From assembly GCF_010183535.1 (NCBI RefSeq), contig NC_071331.1, positions 22,878,001 to 22,942,000 on the forward strand: DNA of 64,000 bases, read 5' to 3'. This DNA comes from Caenorhabditis remanei. Lineage: Eukaryota; Nematoda; Chromadorea; Rhabditida; Rhabditidae. Below the pieces are notes generated by a model. It ran no database searches. It was not told where the DNA came from and worked only from the letters and a program-made list of their open reading frames with translations. Shown piece by piece: positions 4,503 to 60,983 of the stretch. The stretch's first letter is position 1. Each line of letters begins with the position of its first letter. The position numbers and the translations under genes are program-made.

Positions 4503-6837
4503 TTATTGATCCCACAGATAACCCCATCGATTTCCAGTCTGTGGATCATACTCATATCCCCATCGATCATCCAGTTCCTCTTGTTCCGTCATAATTTGCA
4601 CAATTTCCTGATTCAACTCCTCGATCCGTCGATCCCGTGAGTCCGCGTAGTCCTTAAAATGCTGAACTTCTTGCTCCAAACAACCAATTTTTTGATTCAA
4701 CTTCTCGATTTTCTTCTTTTGTTGCGTCACAATTCTCTGCGCCGCCTGGTAATTCTTTTCGGTTTTCAGGAGTGCTTGAGTCTCCAGGCTCAATTGGGAT
4801 TTGTAGTCTTCCAAGTGCTCATTGTGCTCTTTTTGGAGCTCCTGACTTTGTGCAAATTGTCTTGACAACGATTTCTTTGTCTCTGCCAATTCTTCGTACA
4901 TTGACTGTAACAGTTGTGTCTTCTGAATCTGGACCTGAAGTTTCTGATCGACATCTTTTAAGAATTGGATCTCTTGATTCTTCTCAACCAATTTCTCAGT
5001 CATCTTCTCCGATTCCTGCTGAAACTCCTGATTTGCAATGTCCATCTCAAAGAACTCGCTCTTCAACTCTTCAATTTTCTCCTCTTGTTTCCGAATCACT
5101 TCATCCTTCTTTTTCATCTCCTCCTCCATCTTCTGCATCTTCTGATTGTTCTCCAGAATCTCCAGATCCCGATCGTTGACTCTCAACTCGAGCTCCCGAA
5201 TCTTCGCCATAGCCAAGTCGTTTGTCTCCACAAGGCTCCAATATTTCTGATGGATCAAGGTGTCATTTTGCTTCTGGAGCACCTTGGCCGTAAGATTCTG
5301 GAGGTCCTCGGAGTGTTGTTGCTTGAATCCGTTGAGTAGGTCAGTGAGGGTTTGGAGATTGTTGTGAATCGATGACATGTCTGGTGCTGGTGGGGAAGGT
5401 CTGGAACATAAAGTAATTAAATATTCGGAAGGCGGGGCGAAAATATGTATTTTGAGCTTAAAATATAGCGGTCAGGAGCGGTTTAGCTCTAGCGCAGTGA
5501 GGCGTTCTCAAAACAGTACTAATTGTATTCGAGCTCAAATTGAAAATTGTGCGAGCAAACACGATTAGGCACAGTCAGACAAGCTACAATTAGTGGCCGA
5601 GCTCAAAATCTAGAGGTCACGCAGTCAAGAGTGTTGCCTGACGATTCAAATATATTGGTTCAAAGCTTCTATATTCATCAAATAGCTCTTTTCATACTCT
5701 ACATTTTTTTTGTTGACCGTTTTTTGATATCTCCCTTCCCCGCTGAGTTACACATCTTTGAAGGTGAGAAGAGCGCGCAGACAACCAGACATTCTGACCT
5801 CTCTGCGTCTCTTCTCAACTTCAATCGCTTATATCTCAAAAGTGGGCGGAGCTAACAAAAAATTGTCAACTACAAAAATGATCAGCATAAAATTTTGAAT
5901 ATTTTTGTAATTGACAACTTTTTGATAGCTACACCTCTTTTTTGAGATATGCCGGTTTGAAGTTTGGAGAGAGACGCAGACAATTTAGAGTGTCTCGTTG
6001 TCTGCGTCTCTCCTCGACTTCAAACCGCTCTGTCTCAAAAAGGGGCGGAGCTATCAAAAAGTTGTCAACTACAAAAATGATTAAAATTTTATGCTGATCA
6101 TTTTTGTAGTTAACAACTTTTTGATAGCTCCTCCCCTTTTTGAGAAATGACGTTTAGAAGTTTGGGGAGAGACGCAGACAAGGTAGAGAGTCTCGTTGTC
6201 GGCGTCTCTCCTCGACTTCAAACCGCTGTGTCTCAAAAGAGGGCGGAGCTATCAAAATTGTCAACTACAAAAATGCTCAAAAATTTAAGCGCTACATTTT
6301 GTTAGTTAACAACTTTTTGATAGCTTCGCCTCTTTTTCAGTTATGATGGTTCCCTTAGATCCGTTCCTTACCTCTTATCTTCTTCCTTGTTCTTGCCATA
6401 CATATCGTAGAATCTTTTCAATCTTTCCTGAATACTCATTTCATATGGAACAAATCCTACGTTATGAATCGGTTCAGCTTCCTCCCGCTCGGCTTCCTCA
6501 CTGAAATAATTATTTTAATTAGTCTAATTCACACTTTTCATCCTTACAAGCTATCCGCCTCTTCTTCTGGATCGGATTCGGAAATCACATCATTAAGGTC
6601 ATCTGAATCGTCGGAATCGTCTTCTTCAGAATCCCAGTCCTCCGGACCATCCGACACCACCTGACTCCCAGACGGTCCTGGCTCCGTGACATGCTCCTTC
6701 TCCATCGGAAACATTGGAATCGGTTCGCCACTTAGAAACATCGGGTAGTAATATCCTGGGAACATCTGGTTACTAGCTACAAAATGAAGTGCCTTCTGTT
6801 GGTCGGCTTGGAGCTTGTCGGCAACTTGGTCAGCCAT
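4503..6837 (-). CDS. Acidic N-terminus plus long coiled-coil protein
   Basis: Three exons: 6548-6837, 6372-6500 and 4503-5400, joining in phase to 438 residues. I chose the ATG at 6837 (MADQVADKLQ) because a TTCCAG acceptor lies at 6877-6878, 39 bases upstream, and a longer ORF would start beyond it. Residues about 20-45 are rich in Pro, Met, Tyr and Phe (MFPGYYYPMFLSGEPIPMFP); residues 60-100 are a very acidic Ser/Asp/Glu run; from about residue 145 an almost uninterrupted coiled coil of about 280 residues follows (NQKMQKMEEEMKKKDEVIRK). The C terminus ends with two WGY motifs and WDQ. Intron 2 (5401-6371) is swollen by GGCGGAGC foldback repeats. The family is unknown to me. A structural or scaffold role is an inference from the coiled coil alone. 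Confidence 0.8.
5690..6345. repeat. Foldback repeat family (GGCGGAGC palindromes), intronic cluster
   Basis: Several consecutive copies of two alternating palindromes. One reads TATCTCAAAAAGGGGCGGAG, then CTATCAAAAAGTTGTCAACT, then ACAAAAAT, with its reverse complement after a short spacer. The other is an inverted pair around GAGACGCAGACAA and TTGTCTGCGTCTC. The cluster sits in intron 2 of the 4503-6837 gene. No transposase is present, so this is a non-autonomous element or satellite-like array. Confidence 0.85.
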
Positions 6838-6948: not shown

Positions 6949-7013
6949 ATAAGGGTCTAAGGGTCTAAGGGTCTAAGGGTCTAAGGGTCTAAGGGTCTAA
7001 GGGTCTAAGGGTC
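6949..7013. repeat. Microsatellite (TAAGGGTC)n
   Basis: About eight near-perfect copies of the octamer TAAGGGTC directly upstream of the 4503-6837 gene. The unit resembles telomeric repeats only superficially. Confidence 0.9.
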
Positions 7014-9264: not shown

Positions 9265-12200
9265 TCACCACTCTGCGACCATCCAATCGGGTTCCTCTTC
9301 CTCTTCTTCTTCCACTTTTACATCTCTCACCACTACAGTATCATCGTCAAGCTCCGCCTCCTCCAATTTCTTCTCCAATTCCAAATTATTGATTTTCAGC
9401 GTCTCAACCTCATTTTTCAGCTTCTCAATTTTTTCAGCATTATCCGCCTGTCCGATTTCCAGTTCCCTGACTCGTTTTGTCAAATTTTTCAAATTTTTCG
9501 AATATTTCGACTGAATCTCCTGCAGATTCTCTCCATAATCCCGTCTCGCTTTTTTTTCCAAGCTCCGCCCACTCGATGGCCCCGCCTCCTGTCGTTTTGC
9601 GGCTCGACGCTTCTCGAGAATTCCATTTTTGATTTTTTGTTGATTCAGAGGGTCCTCGACGATTTTTGTGACGTTTTCCAGACCTAAAGCGGACATAAAG
9701 GAGGTGTTGTCTTTGAGGAAACTGAAATCCTTGGATTTCCGGTGGAAACGTTTGGGAGCGGTGCTGAAAATGTGGAAAAATTGATAAAAAAAGAGCTGAA
9801 AATAGTAAAAACAGGTTGAAACCCCCAAAAAATTGCCCAAAAAGTCACTAACCTGACTTCTGGAACAGTCGATGCACCATGTTGGGTACCAGATGCACCA
9901 TTTGTGGTCGAAAGACCAAAAAGGTGAGCTGGGGCCAAAAAGCTGAAAATTGGGAAAATTTTCATTAAAAATGATTAAAAATTTTGTAAAAAATGATAAA
10001 ATTTGAAAAAAAGTCACTTACATGCATTCTAGACGAGCCGATGGGTTATGTAGAAGGTTCATTAGATCGTTCGAAGGATACTCGCTGAAAATATAAAAAA
10101 TTGATGAAATTAAGATTAAAATGATCGAAATTCGGTCAAATTTAGGTTAAAAATATATAAAATCATATGGGAAATGATGAAAATTGGATAAAACAACAAA
10201 CTACCTGACATCTGGAACAATCGATGCACCATATGGAGGGATTGATGGACTGTATGGAGTATAGTCGCTGAAAATATCAAGAATTAATGAACATTAAATA
10301 AACATATTCAAATACATACAGAAAATCCTTAAAAATCACTTACTACAATTTCGGGACAGTCGATGTTGGGAGATCAGATGCACCATTTGTGGTCGAACGG
10401 CTAAAAATGCGAAAAATTGATGAAACTTTTGTTTAAATGTGAAAAATTACGTAGAAAATGGTTAAAACTGTCTAAAAACTAAAAAAAATTGTTCAAAAAA
10501 TTAGTAACCTGAGTTCTGGGACAGTCGATGCACCATGTTGGGTATCAGATGCACCATTTGGTGTTGAGAAGCTAAAAATGTGAAAAATTACGTTTTAAAA
10601 TAGTAAAAACTTGCTAAAAACACCAAAAAATGCTTGAACAGTGACTTACTCAGCTTGTGAAATAGTCGATGCACCATGTTTGGTACCAGATGCACTGTCT
10701 AGAGCCGAGAGCCTGAAAATGTAAAAAATTGATAAAATTCTAATTTAAGTTGTTAAAAATTACATGAAAATTAGTAAAAACAGGCTAAAAACACCAAAGA
10801 TTGAGCAAAAAGTTACTAACCTAAGTTTTGGAATAGTCGATGAACCAAATGGAAAGTTCGTCCGATCGTACGAAGTATATTGGCTGAAATTATCGAAAAT
10901 TGATGAAATTAAGATTAAAATGACTCAATTTTAGACAAATTTAGGTTAAAAATATAAAAAATTACATAGAAAATAGTAAAAACCAACTAAAACACCAAAA
11001 ATTGACCAAAAATCTACATTACCTAACATCTGGAACAATCGATGCACCATATGGAGGGTTTGATGGACTGTATGGAGTATAGTCGCTGAAAATATCAAGA
11101 ATTAATGAACATTAAATAAACATATTCAAATACATACAGAAAATCCTAAAAAATCACTTACTACAATTTCGAGACAGTCGATGTTGGGAGATCAGATGCA
11201 CCATTTGTGGTCGAACGGCTAAAAATGTGAAAAATTGATGAGATTTGAGTGAAAATCAATTAATATAGGTTAAAATGCCGAAAATTACATAAAAATTAGT
11301 AAAAATTGGCTGAAAACACCAAAAATTGATAAAAAAGTTACTAACCGAATTTCTGAGCCAGTCGATGCACCATGTTTAGCACCAGATGCACCATTTGGGG
11401 TTGAGAAGCTAAAAATGTGAAAAATTACCGGAATTTGCCAAAAAATCACATTTTAAAAAGTAAAAACTTGCTAAAAACACCAAAAATTGACCAAAAAGTC
11501 ACTAACCTGAGTTCTGAGCCAGTCGATGCACCATGTTTAGCACCAGATGCACTGTCTAGAGCCGAGAGCCTGAAAATGTAAAAAATTGATAAATTTTTAA
11601 TTTAAAATGTCAAAAATTACATGAAAAATACCAAAAATTGACCAAAAATTCACTTACATGTATTTTAGGTCAGCCGATGTTTTATTTAGACGGTTCATTA
11701 GATCGTTCGAAAGATAGTCGCTGAAAATATCAAAAATGTTAAAATTAAGATTAAAATAACTGAAATTTAGACAAATTTAGGTTAAAAATATAACAAATTA
11801 CGTTGGGAACGATGAAACCTGGTTAAAACAACAAAAATTGACCAAAAATCGACGTTACCTGACATCTAAGGCACCAAATGAAGAAAATTGACTGTATGGA
11901 TTGAATCCGCTGAAAGTATTAAAATTTATTGAAATTTAGGTTAAAAATATTAAAAAATCACGTAGAAAATAGTAAAAATCGGCTAAAAACACCAAAAATT
12001 GACCAAAAAATCACTTACTATTTGATTGGGGATGTCGATACAGCAGGTAAAGGGCTCGATTCATCGTTTGGAGTGAATGAGCTGTAAATTTAGGAAATTA
12101 GGATTAAAAATGTTGAAAAAATTGTTTAAAAAGTACGTTTCGAGGCAAAAAATGTCTAAAACTACTTACCCCTCAACGGAACGGGTCGATGCATCATGTT

Positions 12201-14247
12201 CCGGGTCCGATGAATCTGGGGAGGGACTAGATCGGAATAATGATCTGAAATCAGCAGAAATTTACTAATTATTTAATTGAAACCTTTAAAAAAGTTTCAA
12301 TTTTTTCTATAAAACCGAAAAAAATTTTTCGGCTTCGAAAAAAGTCGATGCACCATATTGAGCACTTTTGTTTTTGACGGTTAAAGTTAAATTTTTTATA
12401 CCAATTTTTAATACGGAAGTGCAAAAATCCTTAGAAAATATCAAAAAAGTCACTTACCCGAGTTTTAGAGGGCGCCATGCTCCATGTTCAGCACCAGATG
12501 CATCGTTGGTTGTAGTCAACCTAAATACGTTGTAAAATAAAAAAAAATCAATGAAAATGACCTAAAAATGGCAAAAATTACGTAGAAAATAATAAAAACT
12601 AGCTAAAAAGATCAAAAATTGACTAGAAAAATCACAAACCTGAGTTCTGGGACAGTCGATGCACCATGTTGGGCACCAGATGCACAATTTGAGCGGGAGA
12701 GCCTGAAAATAATAAAAACTTATGGAATTTGACTAAAAATAAGCTAAAAATGCCAAAAATCCCATAAAAATTAGTAAAAACTGGTAAAAAACATCAAAAA
12801 TTGACTAACCTGACTTCTGGGACAGTCGACGCACCATGTTGGGTATCAGATGCACAATTTGAGCGTGAGAGCCTGAAAATAATGAAAATTTATGGAATTC
12901 GACTGAAAATGAGCTGAAAATGGCAAAAAACCCATAAAAATTGATAGAAACTGGTTAAAAATCACTAAAAATTGACCAAAAAGTCACTAACCTGCATTCT
13001 GGAAATGGCGATGGACCAAAAGGGTTTTTTGGATCGAATGGTGTATGTTGTCTGAAAATATCAAAAATTGATAAAAGTTCGATGAAAGATATTGAACAAC
13101 AAAGTTATGCTAAAAATGTCAAAAATTATATAAGAAATGGTGAAAAACCCCAAAAATTGAACGATTCAACCGTTAGAGAGGGCTAAAATAAACAAAAATG
13201 TCTAAAATTCATGAAAAATCGATCAAAATTGCTTTCTGTACCTCTAAAACCAGAGAAAACTCAAATTCGAAAAAAAAAAGTCGATGCACCATATTGAGCA
13301 CTTCCGTTATTTCCCCTCATAACTCTTCAAGGACCGCCCGTAGCAAAAAAGTGATAAACTACAAAAATAATCCATAAGGTGTGATCTACTGAATAAACAT
13401 AATTTCATAGTAGTTATCTTGTTAGCTGGCGCGCGTTAGCCGTTTTTAATCTAGTTTTTAATCATAAAAACTCAAAAAAAAATTTGCTTTCTAAAATCTT
13501 TAAAATCTTTAAAAATCACCAAAAATGACTTACTTGTTTTCTGGAAGAATAATTACACAAGGTCGGGAACCAGATCCACTTTTTGGGGTCGAGAAGCTGA
13601 AAATGTTAAAAATTAATGAAAATTGAAAAAAAAAGTGAGCTAAAAATGTGATAGATTACGTGAAAATATTAAGAACTGGTTGAAAACACCAAAAAATGAC
13701 CAAAAAGTCACTAACCTGACTTCTGGGACAGTCGATGCACCATGTTGGGTACCAGATGCACCATTTGAACATGAGAATCTGGAAATAGTAAAAATTGATT
13801 GATTCGACACAAAAAATGAGCTAAAAATGTCAAAAATTACAAAGAAAATGGTAAAAACCGGCTAAAAACATCAAAAATTGTCTGAAAATCTACACTACCT
13901 GACTTCTGGGACAGTCGATGCATCAACTTTTCTCATCTCTGCTCGCCGACGGCGTGAAAACCAAACTTGCACCTGAAATTTCCTGTAACTTTCCCGAGAA
14001 AAAAGAATCGCCTTCTACCTCCCATGGCTCTTTTCCAATTATCGAAGCGATCCGCTCACGCTCGAAGACGTCCGGATAATTGGTGGTTTGAAACAGCTTT
14101 TCGAGCTCATCGGTTCTAGAAAAATGAGCAGTTTTATGGTTCAAAACGGTGTAAATCAAGAAAGAAAGAAAAACAAAAACCAACTCACCCATCTTCTACT
14201 TCCGTTTTGACCATTTCGAATTCTTGGTATGAATCCGGATACTCCAT
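9265..14247 (-). CDS. Homeobox gene with a 21-exon internal repeat array
   Basis: Twenty-five exons join in one frame to 687 residues: 14189-14247, 14019-14115, 13899-13972, 13716-13778, 13534-13596, 12992-13051, 12810-12872, 12640-12702, 12458-12520, 12170-12244, 12019-12081, 11859-11909, 11658-11720, 11507-11569, 11346-11408, 11162-11218, 11023-11085, 10821-10883, 10650-10712, 10509-10571, 10344-10400, 10205-10267, 10022-10084, 9853-9942, 9265-9763. The ATG follows a TTTTCAG acceptor at 14279. Residues 21-66 match the homeodomain from about position 13: L16, F20, Y25-P26, R31, V45, W48, F49, R52, R53. Helix 3 reads VQVWFSRRRAEMRK. Position 50 is Ser and the usually invariant Asn51 is Arg. 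The intron falls between homeodomain positions 44 and 45. Residues about 77-521 come from the repeat exons. Residues 523-687 have a basic patch (EKRRAAKRQ), a coiled coil and an acidic tail. Likely a nuclear, dimerising DNA-associated protein; altered specificity is inferred. AATAAA lies downstream near 9195. Confidence 0.85.
12290..12400 (-). repeat. Dispersed-repeat terminus resembling the repeat exon
   Basis: An intronic copy of a dispersed repeat whose sense (minus) strand reads GTGCTCAATATGGTGCATCG followed by ACTTTTTTC. It shares ATGGTGCATCGACT with the coding repeat but lacks splice signals. Other copies are at 13255-13310, near 14350-14375 and at 15590-15625. Confidence 0.7.
13255..13470 (-). 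repeat. Longer copy of the same dispersed repeat in an intron
   Basis: Reverse complement of this stretch matches 15530-15625: a TTGTAGTT...CACTTTTTT segment, an AGAGTTATG block, GAAGTGC, then CAATATGGTGCATCGACTTT. It enlarges intron 5 of the homeobox gene. Its shared core with the repeat exons suggests that one gave rise to the other. Confidence 0.65.
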
Positions 14248-15060
14248 TAAAGAACGTTGGAAAAAAACACAAAATTACCTGAAAATTAGCTCAGATTCAA
14301 TACAGAAGAAAAAGCAGCAAAGGAGCGCAAATTTGAAAAAAAAAACTCCGTTTTCAGAAAAAGTCGATGCACCATGAGCTGAAATAGGCAGAAACAATTT
14401 GGTTGATCGGTAATTAGTGAATTAGTGTTTTTCTAGCATTCAAAAACAATAAAATCGTTCAAAAATTGGTCAAAAATTAGTCGAAAATGCAAAAAATTAA
14501 GAAACTTTGAGAAAAAAACATCTTTCTTCAAAAATATGCAAATTTTCTTTTCAGTTAGAACACAAGAAAGATAGAAGAAAAAGAGCGCGAAGCGGTTAGT
14601 CACATGATTATTATGAATTGAAGAGAGAATACTTCCTGACTTAATTCCATACTTCCTGACTTAATTATCTTGCTTTCCACGTATTTCCCCTCCTACCAGG
14701 TCTTTAGCCTCGTGAGGGGCATGATCCGGTCTCCTGTATATTTTCATGATTTATATCCCAGTCAATAAATTAAATTAAATTAAATTAAATTAAATTAAAT
14801 TAAGAGAAAAAGAAGAGGGGAACACGGAGAGTGGTCAGTCGCTGCCAGAAGACCACGAGAGTATGGAGGAGCGAGGGGTGAAGAGGAGAAGAAAGCAACG
14901 TCCGTGCGGACGGACCTTCCCAGCGGTCCTAGTGGACAGAAAAGGGGGACGTTCTCACTGCCGTTCCATAAATTAGCCTAGGAGAGAGAGACAGCATTGT
15001 CTATATACCAGAGCCGCCGGCTTTATTAGAGATGAAATCGTGAAAACTGGCTAGAACACC
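14248..15060. other. Intergenic DNA with a possible non-LTR retroelement tail
   Basis: Near 14690-14770 a segment with GGTCTTTAGCCTCGTGAGGG is followed by AATAAA and a simple (AAATT)n tail (about 14766-14804), the look of a 3' end of a target-primed retroelement. At 14890-15030 and again at 15205-15340 a related segment recurs (GCGGACCxTCCCAGCGGT, CCGTTCCAT, AATTAGC). No reverse-transcriptase ORF is present. Confidence 0.4.
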
Positions 15061-35770: not shown

Positions 35771-36603
35771 CATTGTCCTAACCATTTTAATCGATCTCAA
35801 AGATCTTGACCGATTTGTTTGCTCTCATCCCGGACCCTTTCACCAGATGACGTCACTCTCTTCCACCATTTCATCTCCCTCTCTCATTCAGTCTTCTCCC
35901 TCAGTCCTCTATGGTTTGCGGTTTCCTTATCCCTCCTTCCATACACTATAGTCCTTCCCGGAGCCCTTTCACCAGATGACACTCCACAGCTGCCCCCTTC
36001 CATTCCTCCAGATGACGTGACATTCTCACGTCTTCTAGAATGTTCTGGTGTTTCCCGCGGGCCCCTGTGTCTTCAAGGTCCGCAAAACGCAGTGACGAGA
36101 AATGACGCGCAAAACATTCCCGCGCGTCGTCCGCCATTCTCATCTCCCTCATTCAGTCTTTTCTCCCGTCGGCCTCCTAGGTTGTGCGGTGGCTCTCCTC
36201 TCTCATCTATTCCCCCTCCTCCACCACCTTTTCTTCCCTCGAATCTTCTGGACTGTGCTCTCTCTGTGTGTCGATTTGTCGAGATGGAGATTTAGAATCG
36301 ATTCAACAAATCCAAATCGCTGATCTAAGGAGCTCTGACAAGCAGTGTTCACATGTGAATTACGCCGTTCTAAACTGTTTTAAGCAATCATGACCATCAA
36401 TCTCCACCTGTCTGGTACCATCTAACGTTAATGTCATCCAGCTTCTCAATTCTTCTCAGCCAATCTCTAAATTTTGTTATTTTTCCATTCGCCATTTCAT
36501 CTCTTGGTTTCTCTTGCCGATTTTCAAGCTATCTTTAGCGATCTTGAACGTTCTTACCCGTTCTAAACTAATCTTCACCCTAACCTTTTTCCAGATACCG
36601 GCT
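35771..36603 (+). promoter_or_regulatory. Promoter-like block of the 36604-38949 gene
   Basis: Holds CAGATGACGTGACATTCTCA, the perfect heat-shock element TTCTAGAATGTTC (36033-36045), GTTTCCCGCGGGC, GGTCCGCAAAACGCAG and TTGTGCGGTGG, the inverse order of the block at 26620. From 36310 to 36594 the sequence leads to a CTTTTTCCAG acceptor 9 bases before the ATG. Confidence 0.6.
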
Positions 36604-38949
36604 ATGTCTAACGTAACCAACGATATCCCCGCTCGACCTGTCCAGCAGGACGATATCTTCCATCTCACCTTCTCGCAACTCCACCATATCGACCGTTTGT
36701 GTATCAAGTATTTATGTCGTTTGGACAGAGACGGCCGCGTTTTCATAAACGTTGCAAATATTACCAGTCAAACTGGAGTTCCCGGGGAGACTTTCATGCA
36801 GTTCAATACAGAACGTCGTAGGGCGTGGAGAAGTGCTCGATACTTGAAGGACAAGACAAATCCGGACTTGTTGTCGGGATCAATTTTGAAAATTTCGGGA
36901 AGCACCGATGATGAGTCTGTTACACTGACTTTCGACCAACTTCATCTATTGGGACTCATTTATGAAAATCGTTACGAAAAAGATAGAAAGTTTCCGTGTT
37001 GTGCGGAGAAGAAACAAATTGGAGACTCTATCCATCCAAGACTGAAGACTCTATCCTCCCAAGACATGGATACTTTCTTCTTGACACGTCGGGAGACATT
37101 CAAAAAGTTGGAGATAGATGAAGAGACATACATGGAGCCGGAGTCGGAGCTGAAGAAGCGATTGGAGGAACAGGAGAAAGAGCTCAATGAGACGTAAGTT
37201 GGTGGGATGGGGTACTGTAGACATATCTCCGATCCTAGAGCAGGATCCTAGGGGTACTGTGTCTAGATCAGAGAAATAGCGCTTACAAGGTAGTGTAGAT
37301 GAATTTGGTCAAGTCGGATCCTAGGGATACTGTAGTCGAGTCTAAGATCGGTGGTCAAGAGGATACGGTAACAGGATCCGGAAGAATGATATCATGGGTA
37401 TTGTAGACGATTTCTAAAGTTTTCTAAAATTAGGCCCTAGAAATAGATCCTGGAGTACTGTAATAGATCCTGGAGTACTGCGGGATCCTACAGGTACGAT
37501 AAATGAATCATACTGTAAGATCCTAGAAATGTTGTAGTCTAGTCTTAGAACAATATTCTGGGTGTACTGTAAATTGATTTCAGGTCATACTGTAAAAGAT
37601 TTTGAATTTGAATCCTAATAGGTCTTAGGGATACTGTGAATGGATTCTAGAGCCGATGTCTAGAGAATATGGTAGTTGAATTATAATCAATTATTTTCAG
37701 AAAAACTCAACTAAAACTCGCCAACGACTCTGTCAAAGCAAAGGAACAGGAAATCGAGTCGTTGACGACGACTATCAAAAAACTTCAAATCGAAAACAAT
37801 AAGGTTCATGATGTCTTGTTCCAAGAAAATGATTACCGTATGGAGACGTAAGTAGACAAGATTCTAGTGGTACTGTAGTTATCGAGCTCTTTTCAGAAAA
37901 TCACATCTAAAACTCGCCAACGACACTGTCAAAGCTAAGGACGAGGAAATCGAGTCGTTGAAGAAGGCTGTCAAAAAACTGCACATAGAGAGCTTTGATA
38001 TCTGTCAAATTTTGTGGACAGAAAAAATTGATCATACCAAGACGTAAGTAGTGGGGAACCTGGATTACTGTAGCTAACAAGGTTATTTCAGAGAGACTGA
38101 ACTAAAACTCGCAAGCGACTCTGCCAAAACCAAGGACCGAAAAATCGAGTCGTTGAAAAAGACAATCGAAAGAATTACAATCGAGAAAGATGCTTTGCAC
38201 GAAGACTTGTGCTCCGAGGAAGATAAACATGCTGAGACGTAAGTGAGAGGGGGTACTGTAAGTAGTATGGTGATACTGTACCAAGAATACGTTTTGTAGA
38301 AATAAGGAATACTGTAGTCGGATTCCATATTTGGATTCTAGGGGTACTGTAGTCGGGCCGTGTACCTATATCCTAATTAGAGAACTAGGACACTGGATAC
38401 TGTAGCAAGAAAGGAGGTACTGTAGAAACAGGGGTACCGTATTACTAAGGAGTACTCTTGCAAATAGGGAATACTGTAGGTGTTTGCTTACAGCACGTAG
38501 TATGGTGGTCGGATCCTATATTTCGATCCTAGAGGTACTGTAGGGATAATGAGTGTTTTAGTAATGAAATAGGGGGCACTGTAGTCGCGCTGTGTAGCTT
38601 CAAAAAACTAACCTTTTTCAGCCGGAAAGGACTGTGCAACGCCTATATTTTCAATGCTAAAATTTTGGAAAATCTCAAGAAAACCATCCAAAATATGAAG
38701 GATTCTGAGGAGAAGAAAGTCAACGACCTGGAATCTAAGCTCCAAGAGAAACAGGACGAGCTGAACAACACTGTGAAACTTTATTGGAATCTGGAGAAGA
38801 TTATTACGGAGAAACATTGTGAAGCTCTTATAGAGAAGAAGTATGGCGCTGAGAAGAAGGCGATGGAGAAGAAGATTCAGGAGTTCAAGGAGATGTTGAA
38901 GACACAGAAAACGATTTTCAAGAAGATGCAGGATGTTATTTATAATTGA
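36604..38949 (+). CDS. Double homeodomain-like coiled-coil protein with exon triplication
   Basis: Exons 36604-37193, 37701-37847, 37897-38043, 38092-38238 and 38622-38949, all phase 2, give 452 residues. Residues 21-77 look like a derived homeodomain: LTFSQLHHIDRL for helix 1 and ETFMQFNTERRRAW for helix 3, with Phe at position 48 and an enlarged middle. Residues 108-167 repeat the theme (LTFDQLHLLGLIYENRY, MDTFFLTRRETFKK). Exons 2, 3 and 4 are each exactly 147 nt and homologous (QLKLANDSVKAK, HLKLANDTVKAK, ELKLASDSAKTK, each followed by EIESL or KIESL), so the coiled coil was extended by exon duplication. Exon 5 is a further coiled coil ending KKMQDVIYN. Paralogue: 42218-44338. The long introns are studded with TACTGTAG. 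AATAAA follows. Nuclear localisation is an inference. Confidence 0.85.
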
Positions 38950-50757: not shown

Positions 50758-51989
50758 ATGGAAATAACTCTTCACCAGCATGAACAACTCGCGAAGTTCT
50801 ACAAGCAGAATCGGGCACCAAATGTGCTGCAGGAAACGGCCATGGGCGAATCGGTTGGATTGAATATTTGTGAAGTCCATTCTTGGTTTTGCAAATGCCG
50901 AGATATGGGTCCTGAAGCATTATGGGCGGAGATTTCTTTGAGGATGAAAAAATCGGAGGAACAGAGAAAGAAAAAAGAGCGGGAGGAAGAGATGAAGAAG
51001 GCGTAAGTATAGTTAGTTAGGGGTCAAATATGCTGTTTTTAATTTCCAGAATGACAAAGCTATCTCTAGCGGAAGCCAAAATCACCTCCCAAGCTGCCGA
51101 AATCCAGAAACTAGAGTCCTGGATCACTAACCTCACTACCATGGCCAATATTCAACAGTCAATTCCTGCTAGACTGCTCAATGTTGAGAAGGAGTTGAAA
51201 CGAGTTTCCTCAAAGCTTGAGGAGGCGGAGCTTAAGAAGGAGAATGAGCGGTTGAAGGAGCAAAAGAAGGAGTTGGAGGCGATGTTGCAGTCTAAGAAGA
51301 AACTTGAGGAGCAGGTGGAGAATGGAAAGAAAGAGAACGAGGAGCTGAACAAGATTATTGCGCGACAAGCATCGGAGCTCAGGCAATTCAAGCATCTCAA
51401 GAATGCAGAGATCCAAAATCTTATCAAGAATAGCGTCAAGGATCAAGTCAATGCTCAGCAGGACCAAGCTGCCAACCTCACTACAATGGCTAAAATTCAA
51501 CAGTCCCTCCCTGCTAGACTGCTCAATGTGGAAAACGTGTTGGTACGAGTTTGCACAAAGCTTGAGGAGGCGGAGCTAAAGAAGGATAATGAGGCGATGC
51601 TCCAGCTTGCACATTTAAAAAAAGAAAACAAATCCTTGAAAAATGCGAAAAAGGAGGCGGAGCGAAGAATCAAGGAGCTCCTCAGAGAAAACGAGATTCT
51701 CAACTATGACCTTTTCAGAACAGAGGGTAAAGTGGCAGATCTCCAAACTGTCATCCTGAAATCAAAAGAAGAAGACGATGCGAAGATTCAGAAGGTGGAG
51801 GAGCTTATGGCGGTGTTGGAGAAAGATGTTGAGAAGTTGAAGATGGTTCAGGAGCAGGATTTGGCAACTGATGACGAGGAATCGGAGGATGAAGAGGAGG
51901 AATTGGAAGAGGAGAAGAGTGCTAGAAGATTCATTGACATGAGACTCCCTTGCAATTTGATCAATAGTTTGCAATTGCGTGAAATTTGA
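50758..51989 (+). CDS. Divergent homeodomain plus coiled-coil protein
   Basis: Exons 50758-51002 and 51050-51989 join in phase 2 to 394 residues; ATTCAG lies 10 bases before the ATG. Residues 1-48 align to homeodomain positions 6-53 with exact spacing: L16, Y20, P26, L40, V45, W48, F49 (EVHSWFCKCR). Position 52 is Cys. It continues into the subfamily signature CRDMGPEALWAEI shared with 59735-60983 and 62057-62964. The rest is coiled coil with an internal duplication: NLTTMANIQQSIPARLLNVE and NLTTMAKIQQSLPARLLNVE, each followed by EEAELKK. The acidic tail (DDEESEDEEEELEEEKSA) ends FIDMRLPCNLINSLQLREI. Probable role: dimerising nuclear protein (inference). AATAAA follows the stop. Confidence 0.88.
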
Positions 51990-56086: not shown

Positions 56087-57321
56087 TCAAAAATTAGATT
56101 GCTCGATTTGAAGGAAAATGGAAGAACGACCAGCTTTTGAATTCAAAACAGACACACCGACTGATCCTATTTTCCCCGTATTCGTTCGAACTTTTTACAA
56201 TATTTCCTTTCATATTCATTTAGAAAGTTCATACAAAAAAAAACAACAAAAAAACGAATAAGAAGGTTTCGAACCCCCACCACACCGATTATCACCCCCG
56301 CCCTCTCCCACTGCGCCATTTGTGCACAGAAAACCGAGGTCATGGAGAGAATAGAAAAGAGGGGAGCTCCTCGCAGCTGTACAATGACACATACAATGAC
56401 AAAATGGTCAGTGTATTCGAAAAAATGTCAGTGTAGATTCAGGTTTCTCCACAGAATCGTCCGATATCAATATTTTTTGATCGGACTTTTTGGTTCCATT
56501 AGATCTCCAAAAGTTTAGATCGGTGTCAAAAATTCAGAGCGATTCAGTGGATCCAGTGCCCAGGACAGCGAATAGAAAAAATCCCAACATGACCGAAAAA
56601 CCACGAAAATCACAAAATTCGGTTTTCTGAATGGGTTTTCAGCTAAAAGTATATTGAATTTTACATGGATCGATAGAGATTTTTTTTCCACACATTTCCT
56701 TTTTTTCGGATCTTGAAATTTCTCAAAACTGAGCGAGTTACAGCCGGTCAAAGTTTTAGGCGAAAAAAGGGGGATCGATCGATAATCGCTCATTTTTTGA
56801 CTGTTTTTTGAGTATAACTCGATTGCATCACTTCCAAATTAAAATCTGTTTTTTTAGTCACCTTCCCCATGCCAAGTTTCATAACTGTACCAAATTTCAA
56901 AGCTTTCGGTTTAATACAACGCGAGATATCGAGAGGAAAGTAAAAAATTTGGAAAAAAAAGTAGTTCCCTTTCTTTTATGGCCATAAATCATATTTTTTT
57001 ATATTTCCAGATAATTTTTACATGTCTCGATAGCCAGATGTTCAGAGATCTTAAGTCCAGAATATCCCCCCGAAATGTTCAAAACTGGCGCCGTACGAAG
57101 CAAGAAAAGGCAAAAATCGTGAATTTCTCAAGCCATTTTTTTGAGTGAAAAAAGTTGCTCTTACTTTTGTGCTCATAACTTTTTCGCGAATGCTCCAAAC
57201 CCAACCCCTGGCGGTCGCCACCGGCGCCCCAAGTTTTTGTATCACCTCAAAAAAGAATTTTTTGAAAAAGTTGAGAACAAAGAGAGTTATTAAGAAAAAT
57301 GAGTGCGGACGTTTTTGTGGA
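56087..57321. other. Intergenic repeat-like DNA
   Basis: A tRNA-like segment on the minus strand (56257-56330) has A-box TGGCGCAGTGGGAGAGG and B-box GGTTCGAAACC but no complete cloverleaf. 56450-57300 contains frames without splice support and sentences typical of dispersed nematode repeats (GAGCGAGTTACAGCCGGTC). No gene called. Confidence 0.4.
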
Positions 57322-57484
57322 CATTTTTTTTACCACAAGCTCCGCCCACTCCAAATCGGCACGCCTGTCCATAGGCGATTTAAGAAGAGGGGCCGATTTT
57401 TGACATTTTTTTTACCACAAGCTCCGCCCACTCCAAATCGGCACGCCTGTCCATAGGCGATTTAAGAAGAGGGGCCGATTTTTG
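57322..57484. repeat. Two tandem 82-bp units
   Basis: The unit with ACCACAAGCTCCGCCCACTC, CGGCACGCCTGTCCATAGGC and GAAGAGGGGCCGATTTTTGA is repeated twice with no visible change. The second copy abuts and enters the 3' end of the gene starting at 57789. Confidence 0.9.
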
Positions 57485-57789
57485 ACAAGACGCGCCTTGA
57501 GCTCCAGATTCTCCGTCACACATTTTTCAAATGCTTTGTGGACGCCATCCATATCCCGGATAGCCTTAAGGAGTTGGCCCTGAAGTTCTAGAATCTGTTG
57601 GTCCTTGGCTTGAAGCAACTCTTTCTTATCGTTTTCTGCCTTCATCAACTTCTCCTTCAAATCCATTTCAGATTCCTTGAGTCTCAGAATCTTCTGATGC
57701 TTCCTGTCGACTTTCACCTTCAGATCTCCAATTTCTTTGGTTGCAGTCATGTGATTTTTCGTGTGGAGCTCGTCGATGACATTCATCAT
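57412..57789 (-). CDS. Coiled-coil gene, 3' end replaced by repeat
   Basis: A 125-residue frame starting MMNVIDELHTKNHM; a TTTTCCAG acceptor lies directly before the ATG, so this may be a first exon after trans-splicing or an internal exon. Residues 15-100 are coiled coil (KHQKILRLKESEMDLKEKLM, DKKELLQAKDQQILELQGQL). The last 25 or so residues (NRPLFLNRLWTGVPIWSGRS) are encoded by the tandem 82-bp unit and cannot be native, so the gene is probably truncated. It is head-to-head with 58394-59179 over a block with a perfect heat-shock element. Confidence 0.55.
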   Translation of the reverse strand: MMNVIDELHTKNHMTATKEIGDLKVKVDRKHQKILRLKESEMDLKEKLMKAENDKKELLQAKDQQILELQGQLLKAIRDMDGVHKAFEKCVTENLELKARLVKNRPLFLNRLWTGVPIWSGRSLW

Positions 57790-59734: not shown

Positions 59735-60983
59735 TTAATCTGAATCTTCTGGAACGTTTATCGGGGGGTGGAGAGAACTACTCTCCGGAATATCTTCCAC
59801 AGACCAGCATGTCAGACCTGTAGAACAGTTTTCTTCGAAGGCGTTCAGCAGTTTTGTGATTTGTTCCTGCTGAGCATTGACTGCATCTTTGACACTATTC
59901 TGGATGCTAGTGAGATTTTGGATATCGGCTAGAAGATTCTTAGATTCCTTGAGCTCCAACGATTGCTGTGCAATTATCTTGTTCATCTCCTCGTTCTCTT
60001 TTTTTCCATTTTCCACTTGCTCCCTGAGCTCAGCAGATTGCTCTTCGTTTCTTTGGGTCATAGTCTCAATTTTATCATTCATTTCTTTCAGCAGCAATCT
60101 CAGCTCTTGAACTTGCTCCTCGAGCTTCTTCTTGGTCTGAAGCATTGCCTCCAATTCCTTCTTTTGTTCCTTCAATCTCTCATTCTCTTTCTTGAGCTCC
60201 GCCTCCTCAAAAGTCTTCAGCTGCAAGGAAACTCGTGTCAACACCTTCTCAATTGTAAAGAGTCTAACAGGATCTGATTGATTATGAGACATGGTAGTGA
60301 GATTGGTGATCCAGGAGTCCAGTTTCTGGATTTCGTCAGTTCGGTCCTTGGCGCTATTCTTGATCAGATTTTGAATCTCTGCATCCTTGTCGGCAATGAG
60401 ATTCTTAGATTCCGCGAGCTCCGCTGCTTGTTGCGCAATAATCTTTTTCAACTCCTCGTTTTCTTTCTTTTCATACACCTCATTAAGCTCCGCCTTTTCT
60501 CCGACCTCCGTCCACAATGCGTCAGGCCCCACAGTGCGGCATCTGAAGAACCAGCAATCCACGGCTACATTTGTCATCGCAACCGATTCGGCTATGATCT
60601 CCCTCTGATCATAATCTGGAATTGGATTCGTCTCGTAGAACTTTGTTAGCTTTTTATGCTGGTAGTGGGTGATCTTCTTCTTCTTCGCCCTGAAAAATAA
60701 AACGTTAGTCAAAATTTGAATACAGGATAGTTAATACTTACATCTCTTCCTTCCGCTCCTTTTTCCTCTTCTGTTCCTCCGATTTTTTCTTCTCCAAAGA
60801 AATCTCCGCCCACAATGCCCCAGGACCCATGGCTCGACATTTGGCAAACCAAACATCGACCTCGTTACTGCGATATCTAAATCCGATCGATTTTTTAATG
60901 ATTTCTTTTTGATTATCATCTGGAATCGGATTCATCTCGTAACACTTAGTAAGAATTTCATGCTGATGAAGAGTAATGGTCAT
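59735..60983 (-). CDS. Double-homeodomain coiled-coil protein
   Basis: Exons 60742-60983 and 59735-60689 join in phase 2 to 398 residues; TTTCAG lies 10 bases before the ATG. Homeodomain 1 (residues 2-52, TITLHQHEILTKCYEMNPIP to VDVWFAKCR) has about two extra residues before helix 3. Homeodomain 2 (residues 87-133, ITHYQHKKLTKFYETNPIPD to VDCWFFRCR) has canonical spacing with L16, Y20, P26, R31, V45, W48 and F49. Each runs into the signature CR.(M/V)GP.ALW. The intron sits between the two, so the second unit probably arose by duplication of an HD exon. The remainder is coiled coil, including LKKIIAQQAAELAESKNLIA, repeated later as MNKIIAQQSLELKESKNLLA. The tail ENCSTGLTCWSVEDIPES is Cys/Trp-containing. 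AATAAA is present. Confidence 0.88.

What the first reader, a model, noticed from the sequence alone, without database searches (positions are those of the whole stretch)
9853..13778. Homeobox gene whose middle is built from 21 copies of one small symmetric exon
Between a homeodomain and a coiled coil, 21 consecutive exons encode variants of one 21-residue motif (core NGAS.TQHGASTVPEV). All are phase 2 at both ends and divisible by three, so any number can be added, lost or skipped without breaking the frame. Recurrent order of variant types (10205-10883 against 11023-11569) shows block duplication of exons with introns. I know of no described homeobox gene with such an array. It could act as an alternatively spliced, length-variable linker.
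Basis: partly seen in the sequence, partly recalled or inferred. Interest (0 to 1): 0.92.

Follow-up and report, generated by a model that had tools for sequence, protein, structure and literature searches.

The report
Homeobox gene with 21 repeated small exons
A roundworm homeobox gene carries, between its DNA-binding-type domain and a coiled coil, a probably floppy stretch built from 21 small interchangeable exons whose number differs between two records of the gene, a natural case of a regulatory-type protein whose linker can grow or shrink without breaking the reading frame.

Summary
On the minus strand, 21 consecutive small exons (9853-13778) lie between a homeodomain and a coiled-coil exon. 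All 21 are phase 2 at both ends, divisible by three, open in one frame, with AG/GT borders. The duplicated unit is exon plus intron, with five-unit higher-order blocks. The 'one motif' claim is overstated: 8 of 21 units contain HGAST; 17 of 21 resemble a unit other than their block twin at protein level, 19 of 21 at DNA level. No other intact copy was found in the genome. C. remanei CRE_01280 has the same architecture with 15 units in nearly the same order. A 357-aa relative from a 1181-base contig joins homeodomain, three QHG motifs and coiled coil, as a spliced transcript would. No transcript of the window gene and no alternative splicing could be tested. Added here: the homeodomain is degenerate (no N-terminal arm; Asn51 lost), paralogous units show no excess of silent change, and the ATGGTGCATCGAC core is also a dispersed genomic motif. 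Best reading: a frame-locked, disordered, length-evolving tether, comparable to titin PEVK or schistosome micro-exon genes.

The parts
14189..14247 (-). exon 1, start codon and N-terminal leader (MEYPDSYQEFEMVKTEVEDG)
   Evidence: second Met region aligns with the start of P0002; the CRE_01280 model starts elsewhere, inside what is intron here
14019..14115 (-). exon 2, homeodomain helices 1 and 2
   Evidence: Pfam PF00046, E 8.8e-9, residues 21-62
13899..13972 (-). exon 3, homeodomain helix 3, ending in a half unit (VDASTVPEVR)
   Evidence: 82% DNA match of its 3' end and following intron to the array unit
13716..13778 (-). array exon 1 FSCSNGASGTQHGASTVPEV
13534..13596 (-). array exon 2 FSTPKSGSGSRPCVIILPEN
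12992..13051 (-). array exon 3 QHTPFDPKNPFGPSPFPEC
12810..12872 (-). array exon 4 LSRSNCASDTQHGASTVPEV
12640..12702 (-). array exon 5 LSRSNCASGAQHGASTVPEL
12458..12520 (-). array exon 6 LTTTNDASGAEHGAWRPLKL
12170..12244 (-). array exon 7 SLFRSSPSPDSSDPEHDASTRSVE (75 nt)
12019..12081 (-). array exon 8 SFTPNDESSPLPAVSTSPIK
11859..11909 (-). array exon 9 GFNPYSQFSSFGALDV (51 nt)
11658..11720 (-). array exon 10 DYLSNDLMNRLNKTSADLKY
11507..11569 (-). array exon 11 LSALDSASGAKHGASTGSEL
11346..11408 (-). array exon 12 FSTPNGASGAKHGASTGSEI
11162..11218 (-). array exon 13 RSTTNGASDLPTSTVSKL (57 nt)
11023..11085 (-). array exon 14 DYTPYSPSNPPYGASIVPDV
10821..10883 (-). array exon 15 QYTSYDRTNFPFGSSTIPKL
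10650..10712 (-). array exon 16 LSALDSASGTKHGASTISQA
10509..10571 (-). array exon 17 FSTPNGASDTQHGASTVPEL
10344..10400 (-). array exon 18 RSTTNGASDLPTSTVPKL (57 nt)
10205..10267 (-). array exon 19 DYTPYSPSIPPYGASIVPDV
10022..10084 (-). array exon 20 EYPSNDLMNLLHNPSARLEC
9853..9942 (-). array exon 21 FLAPAHLFGLSTTNGASGTQHGASTVPEV (90 nt)
9265..9763 (-). last exon: basic region, coiled coil, acidic tail, stop codon
   Evidence: in the CRE_01280 model the matching region is one long helix (residues 491-564)

Best explanation
This is a single-copy, fast-evolving nematode homeobox gene whose product has three parts: a truncated paired-like homeodomain, a disordered S/T/P/A/G-rich linker, and a basic and coiled-coil C-terminus. 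The linker is encoded by exons that are symmetric (phase 2-2), so every unequal exchange inside the array adds or removes whole units in frame. Shown: architecture, phases, exon-plus-intron block duplication with period five, 15 against 21 units in two records. Inferred: the coiled coil pairs the protein with itself or other coiled-coil proteins, and the linker is a flexible tether whose length, more than its exact sequence, matters; it sets the reach between the coiled-coil partner and a homeodomain that has lost the usual Asn51 contact and N-terminal arm. The odds given are for the tether mechanism; for the architecture alone I would say 0.9.
For: Frame and splice sites intact in 21 of 21 units while sequence drifts; the six exons that are not 63 nt all differ by multiples of three, introns do not follow such a rule. 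Among 105 pairs of 63-nt units pN 0.420 is about pS 0.389, and third codon positions differ least (721 of 2100, against 1033 and 844), so the array shows frame constraint without sign of protein-sequence constraint between units. Two relocated fragments outside the gene have lost frame, a stop-free frame or donor. CRE_01280: homeodomain 38 of 45 and C-terminal region 152 of 165 residues identical, 15 units. Model of CRE_01280: homeodomain blocks 76-85 pLDDT, residues 68-451 below 50, then helices. Composition S 17.5%, P 10.1%, T 9.2%.
Against: The low pLDDT rests on two aligned sequences, so disorder is not shown. Matched units of the two records are 237 of 289 identical (best-scoring unit), and some are nearly unchanged (RSTTNGASDLPTSTVPKL 18 of 18, QHTPFDPKNPFGPSPFPE 18 of 19, unit 7 23 of 24), which suggests that some unit sequences are conserved. 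Five close twin pairs give dN/dS 0.69 (9 silent, 17 replacement changes), compatible with weak purifying selection. No transcript of the window gene was available.
Confidence: 0.45

Rival explanations
1. Splice-variant generator: units are skipped in different combinations, giving many linker isoforms from one gene, as in schistosome micro-exon genes or titin PEVK.
For: 21 of 21 units can be skipped singly or together without breaking the frame. Passages of PMC4350168 say that small symmetrical exons let micro-exon genes make pools of similar proteins, and that VAL-6 joins such exons to another gene; passages of PMC6469411 describe PEVK isoforms by splicing.
Against: Symmetry alone also follows from duplication of one symmetric exon. 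Donor and acceptor sites look ordinary for the species, with no obvious class of weak sites; this was judged by eye. No RNA data.
Confidence: 0.2
2. By-product: unequal exchange adds exons, the frame is kept because shifts are removed, and the linker has no role; the gene is losing homeodomain function.
For: No N-terminal arm, Asn51 replaced by Arg (window) or His (CRE_01280); pN about equal to pS between units; relocated dead fragments; only one second record with an array found in the protein database.
Against: C-terminal region 152 of 165 identical between records and all exons open in both; P0002 suggests expression in a relative; several units nearly identical between the records.
Confidence: 0.25
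3. Multivalent docking platform: repeated HGAST-like peptides bind one partner protein many times.
For: HGAST occurs in 8 of 21 units and GAS in 12 of 21; similar QHG motifs persist three times in P0002.
Against: 13 of 21 units lack HGAST; amino-acid change between units is as frequent as silent change; the same DNA word is a dispersed non-coding motif, which offers another reason for its recurrence.
Confidence: 0.1

Closest known systems
Schistosome micro-exon genes (MEGs) and the composite gene VAL-6 (passages of PMC4350168)
   Same: Many very small symmetrical exons make up much of the coding region; VAL-6 joins such an array to another kind of gene.
   Different: MEG products are secreted or gland-associated; here the array joins a homeodomain to a coiled coil, units are clear duplicates, introns are mostly short (76-139 nt for 20 of 22), splicing variation is untested.
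Titin PEVK region (passages of PMC6469411)
   Same: Repeated small exons for a disordered segment; exon number varies between species through duplication and loss; length thought to matter more than single exons in part of it.
   Different: Muscle spring in a giant protein; different sequence; alternative splicing is documented there and not here.
Divergent Caenorhabditis homeobox genes (passages of PMC4448998): ceh-99, ceh-100, duxl-1, HOCHOB genes
   Same: Species-restricted, fast-evolving homeobox genes enlarged by internal duplication.
   Different: There the homeodomains themselves are multiplied; here the linker is.
Paired-like homeodomains (aristaless, Otx/CEH-37, DUX4 by sequence)
   Same: YPD..RE..A and QVWF signatures, full helices 1-3 region aligned from helix 1 on.
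   Different: N-terminal arm absent, one extra residue in helix 3 region, Asn51 lost.

Membership tests
Homeobox gene (Pfam PF00046) | Homeodomain above the curated score | tested here: met
   35.5 bits against cut-off 22.9, residues 21-62, profile 12-53 of 57
Homeobox gene (Pfam PF00046) | Complete domain with N-terminal arm | tested here: not met
   Match starts at profile position 12; P0002 also starts just before helix 1
Homeobox gene (Pfam PF00046) | Asn51 in helix 3 (its importance is recalled) | tested here: not met
   R here, H in CRE_01280, N kept in P0002
Schistosome-type micro-exon gene | Much of the coding region in very small symmetrical exons | tested here: met
   21 exons of 51-90 nt, all phase 2-2
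Schistosome-type micro-exon gene | Alternative splicing of those exons | not testable with these tools
   No RNA reads at hand
Schistosome-type micro-exon gene | Secreted product | not tested
   No signal-peptide program was run; the leader MEYPDSYQEFEMVKTEVEDG is acidic and not hydrophobic by eye
HOCHOB double homeodomain | Two homeodomains with a cysteine-bearing linker | tested here: not met
   Pfam finds one homeodomain stretch

The most novel reading that the evidence does not exclude
A homeobox protein whose linker length is a heritable, quantitatively variable trait: array unit number differs among wild alleles and, with exon skipping, tunes how far a coiled-coil-bound complex sits from a repurposed, non-canonical homeodomain; the unit core was recruited from a dispersed genomic sequence motif.
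Probability: 0.15. Interest if true: 0.8.

Novelty: new variant of a known kind. Interest (0 to 1): 0.55.

Why it matters
It puts a symmetric-exon array, known from muscle and secreted parasite proteins, into a homeobox gene, with two records that differ in unit number. That makes it a direct test bed for whether disordered linker length in regulatory proteins is under selection, using natural alleles of an outcrossing worm.

Tried and rejected
Assembly or chance artefact: rejected, because an independent protein record carries 15 units in nearly the same order. Array introns as a genome-wide repeat: a search with one 127-nt intron found 7 places, all in this gene, with the caveat that the tool skips very common words. 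Array elsewhere in the genome: the protein search found 32 matches; those outside this gene were six homeodomains (C1:6665972, two on C5, one each on C6, C3, C2) and one weak coiled coil (E 1.14); DNA search added two fragments, on C5 and C4, both broken. Whole-gene origin of the motif from a mobile element: not settled; the 15-mer CATGGTGCATCGACT is in 222 places with up to 1 mismatch (control 2), but flanks differ. Homeodomain search by Pfam in the genome did not list this gene's own split homeodomain, so it is not a full census. Literature: no paper on this gene or on a homeobox gene with such an array appeared in the listings (CRE_01280) found 0 papers. Subscription papers are mostly not held. 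PMC4448998, PMC6469411, PMC4350168 and PMC10015627 were seen as passages only. Structure search of the model against solved folds was not run.

Full report
Observation. The gene lies on the minus strand, 14247 to 9265. Exons 14247-14189, 14115-14019 and 13972-13899 encode a leader and a homeodomain; 21 small exons follow (13778-13716 to 9942-9853); exon 9763-9265 encodes a basic region, a coiled coil and an acidic tail. The joined frame is 687 aa. 21 of 21 small exons are phase 2 at both ends, a multiple of three, and open in the coding frame; only 7 and 14 of 21 are open in the two others. Fifteen are 63 nt, six deviate by -3, +12, -12, -6, -6 and +27.

How it grew. Exon and intron were duplicated together. 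Neighbouring intron ends are alike without gaps (63% for the last 30 nt and 60% for the first 30 nt, against 41% and 38% in shuffles), though these stretches include the splice signals. Over whole introns the gapped identity is 0.79 against 0.74 in shuffles, a small margin, since the introns are very AT-rich. Units 11-14 and 16-19 are a recent block copy (exons 84-98%, introns 79-99%), and similarity has a period of five units (24 of 10000 permutations by protein, 34 of 10000 by DNA). The homeodomain exon 13972-13899 itself ends in a half unit, VDASTVPEVR, and its end and following intron match the unit DNA at 82% over 61 bases. So the array may have begun at, or spread into, the homeodomain exon.

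How uniform it is. With the block twin left out, 17 of 21 units exceed 99% of shuffles in similarity to another unit by protein and 19 of 21 by DNA. Units 7, 8, 10 and 20 fail by protein; 8 and 10 fail by DNA and belong by position, phase and flanks. HGAST is in 8 of 21, GAS in 12 of 21.

Relatives. Three protein searches gave two proteins of the same architecture. CRE_01280 of C. remanei (591 aa) has 15 units; the first 14 match window units, 13 of 14 in consistent order by best score, the eighth scoring best with units 14 and 19 instead of 9; the fifteenth has no counterpart in order. The window has an extra tandem copy (unit 4 or 5) and an extra block around units 11-19. Its model starts in what is intron here and reads through the last intron, so it is a prediction with errors, and skipped exons cannot be excluded. 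P0002 (357 aa, source label lgn, which I recall as an assembly of public reads, species not given, contig 1181 bases) holds homeodomain, three QHG motifs and the same C-terminus without room for introns, as expected of a transcript; its DNA was not seen. The profile search added four more homeodomain proteins that share little beyond that domain (14-24% of the query covered). Species: six chromosome-sized contigs and 130.5 Mb and the close match to CRE_01280 point to C. remanei or its sister C. latens; strain names are recalled. So 15 against 21 may be a difference between strains or between sister species.

Homeodomain. It is paired-like by sequence (best solved chains aristaless, E 7e-10; also DUX4, PAX6, CEH-37, OTX2). 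The match begins at profile position 12, and the residue aligned with Asn51 is Arg here, His in CRE_01280, Asn in P0002. That Asn51 and the arm are key DNA contacts is recalled knowledge. Normal DNA binding is therefore doubtful in the two array-rich records.

Selection. Between the 15 units of 63 nt, 105 pairs give pS 0.389 and pN 0.420, 56 of 105 with pN above pS, and codon positions 1, 2, 3 differ in 1033, 844 and 721 of 2100 comparisons. Five twin pairs pooled give dS 0.122, dN 0.084. Between units, then, frame is kept and sequence is free. Against that, between the two records some units are nearly unchanged; without the DNA of CRE_01280 this cannot be judged. Two fragments of the array outside the gene (C5:15483599-15483695 and C4:20861127-20861177) are decayed: an in-frame TGA and a 64-nt exon in one, no donor in the other.

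Structure. A model of CRE_01280 with two aligned sequences gives three homeodomain helices (pLDDT 76-85 in blocks), residues 68-451 under 50, and a helix at 491-564. This fits a disordered linker but a two-row alignment is weak ground.

The dispersed word. CATGGTGCATCGACT, which encodes HGAST in the array, occurs 222 times with up to one mismatch against 2 for the reversed control. 35 of these are exact by my count of the list: 7 in array exons, one upstream at 14362-14376, 27 elsewhere. ATGGTGCATC also occurs twice within 5-22 bases at 29 places, four in this array and one in the C4 fragment, and as an inverted pair at 9 places. Two introns of this gene (near 12340-12366 and 13270-13296) hold it too, the second inside a dispersed repeat found at 17 other places. 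The unit core may thus descend from such a motif; direction of descent is not shown.

Verdict. The array is real, coding by every indirect test, and of a kind known elsewhere, in a kind of gene where I found no report of it. The mechanism proposed, an evolving flexible tether, is inference.

Noticed in passing
37701-38238: Neighbouring gene with two homeodomain-like stretches (judged by eye from the frame at 36514-37197): three tandem 147-nt exons (37701-37847, 37897-38043, 38092-38238), phase 2-2, each 49 codons (seven heptads long), encoding coiled-coil-like copies. A second symmetric exon expansion in the same window.
   Followed up: partly
genome C1-C6, e.g. C5:2545549-2545802 and C5:3702666-3821416: The word ATGGTGCATCGAC is dispersed through the genome, sometimes as inverted pairs or short tandem runs. 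Nature unknown.
   Followed up: partly
L057 (about 4787-4971) and L058: Decayed fragments of the exon array on other places of C5 and C4.
   Followed up: yes
50758-50901, 60539-60691 and C4:22943768-22953753 right of the window: Cluster of weak homeodomain matches, two in the window and nine within 12 kb beyond its right end; many long frames in the window look like coiled coils.
   Followed up: no
57320-57487: Exact tandem duplication of 82 bases, two copies at 100%.
   Followed up: no
6950-7013: Eight perfect copies of TAAGGGTC.
   Followed up: no
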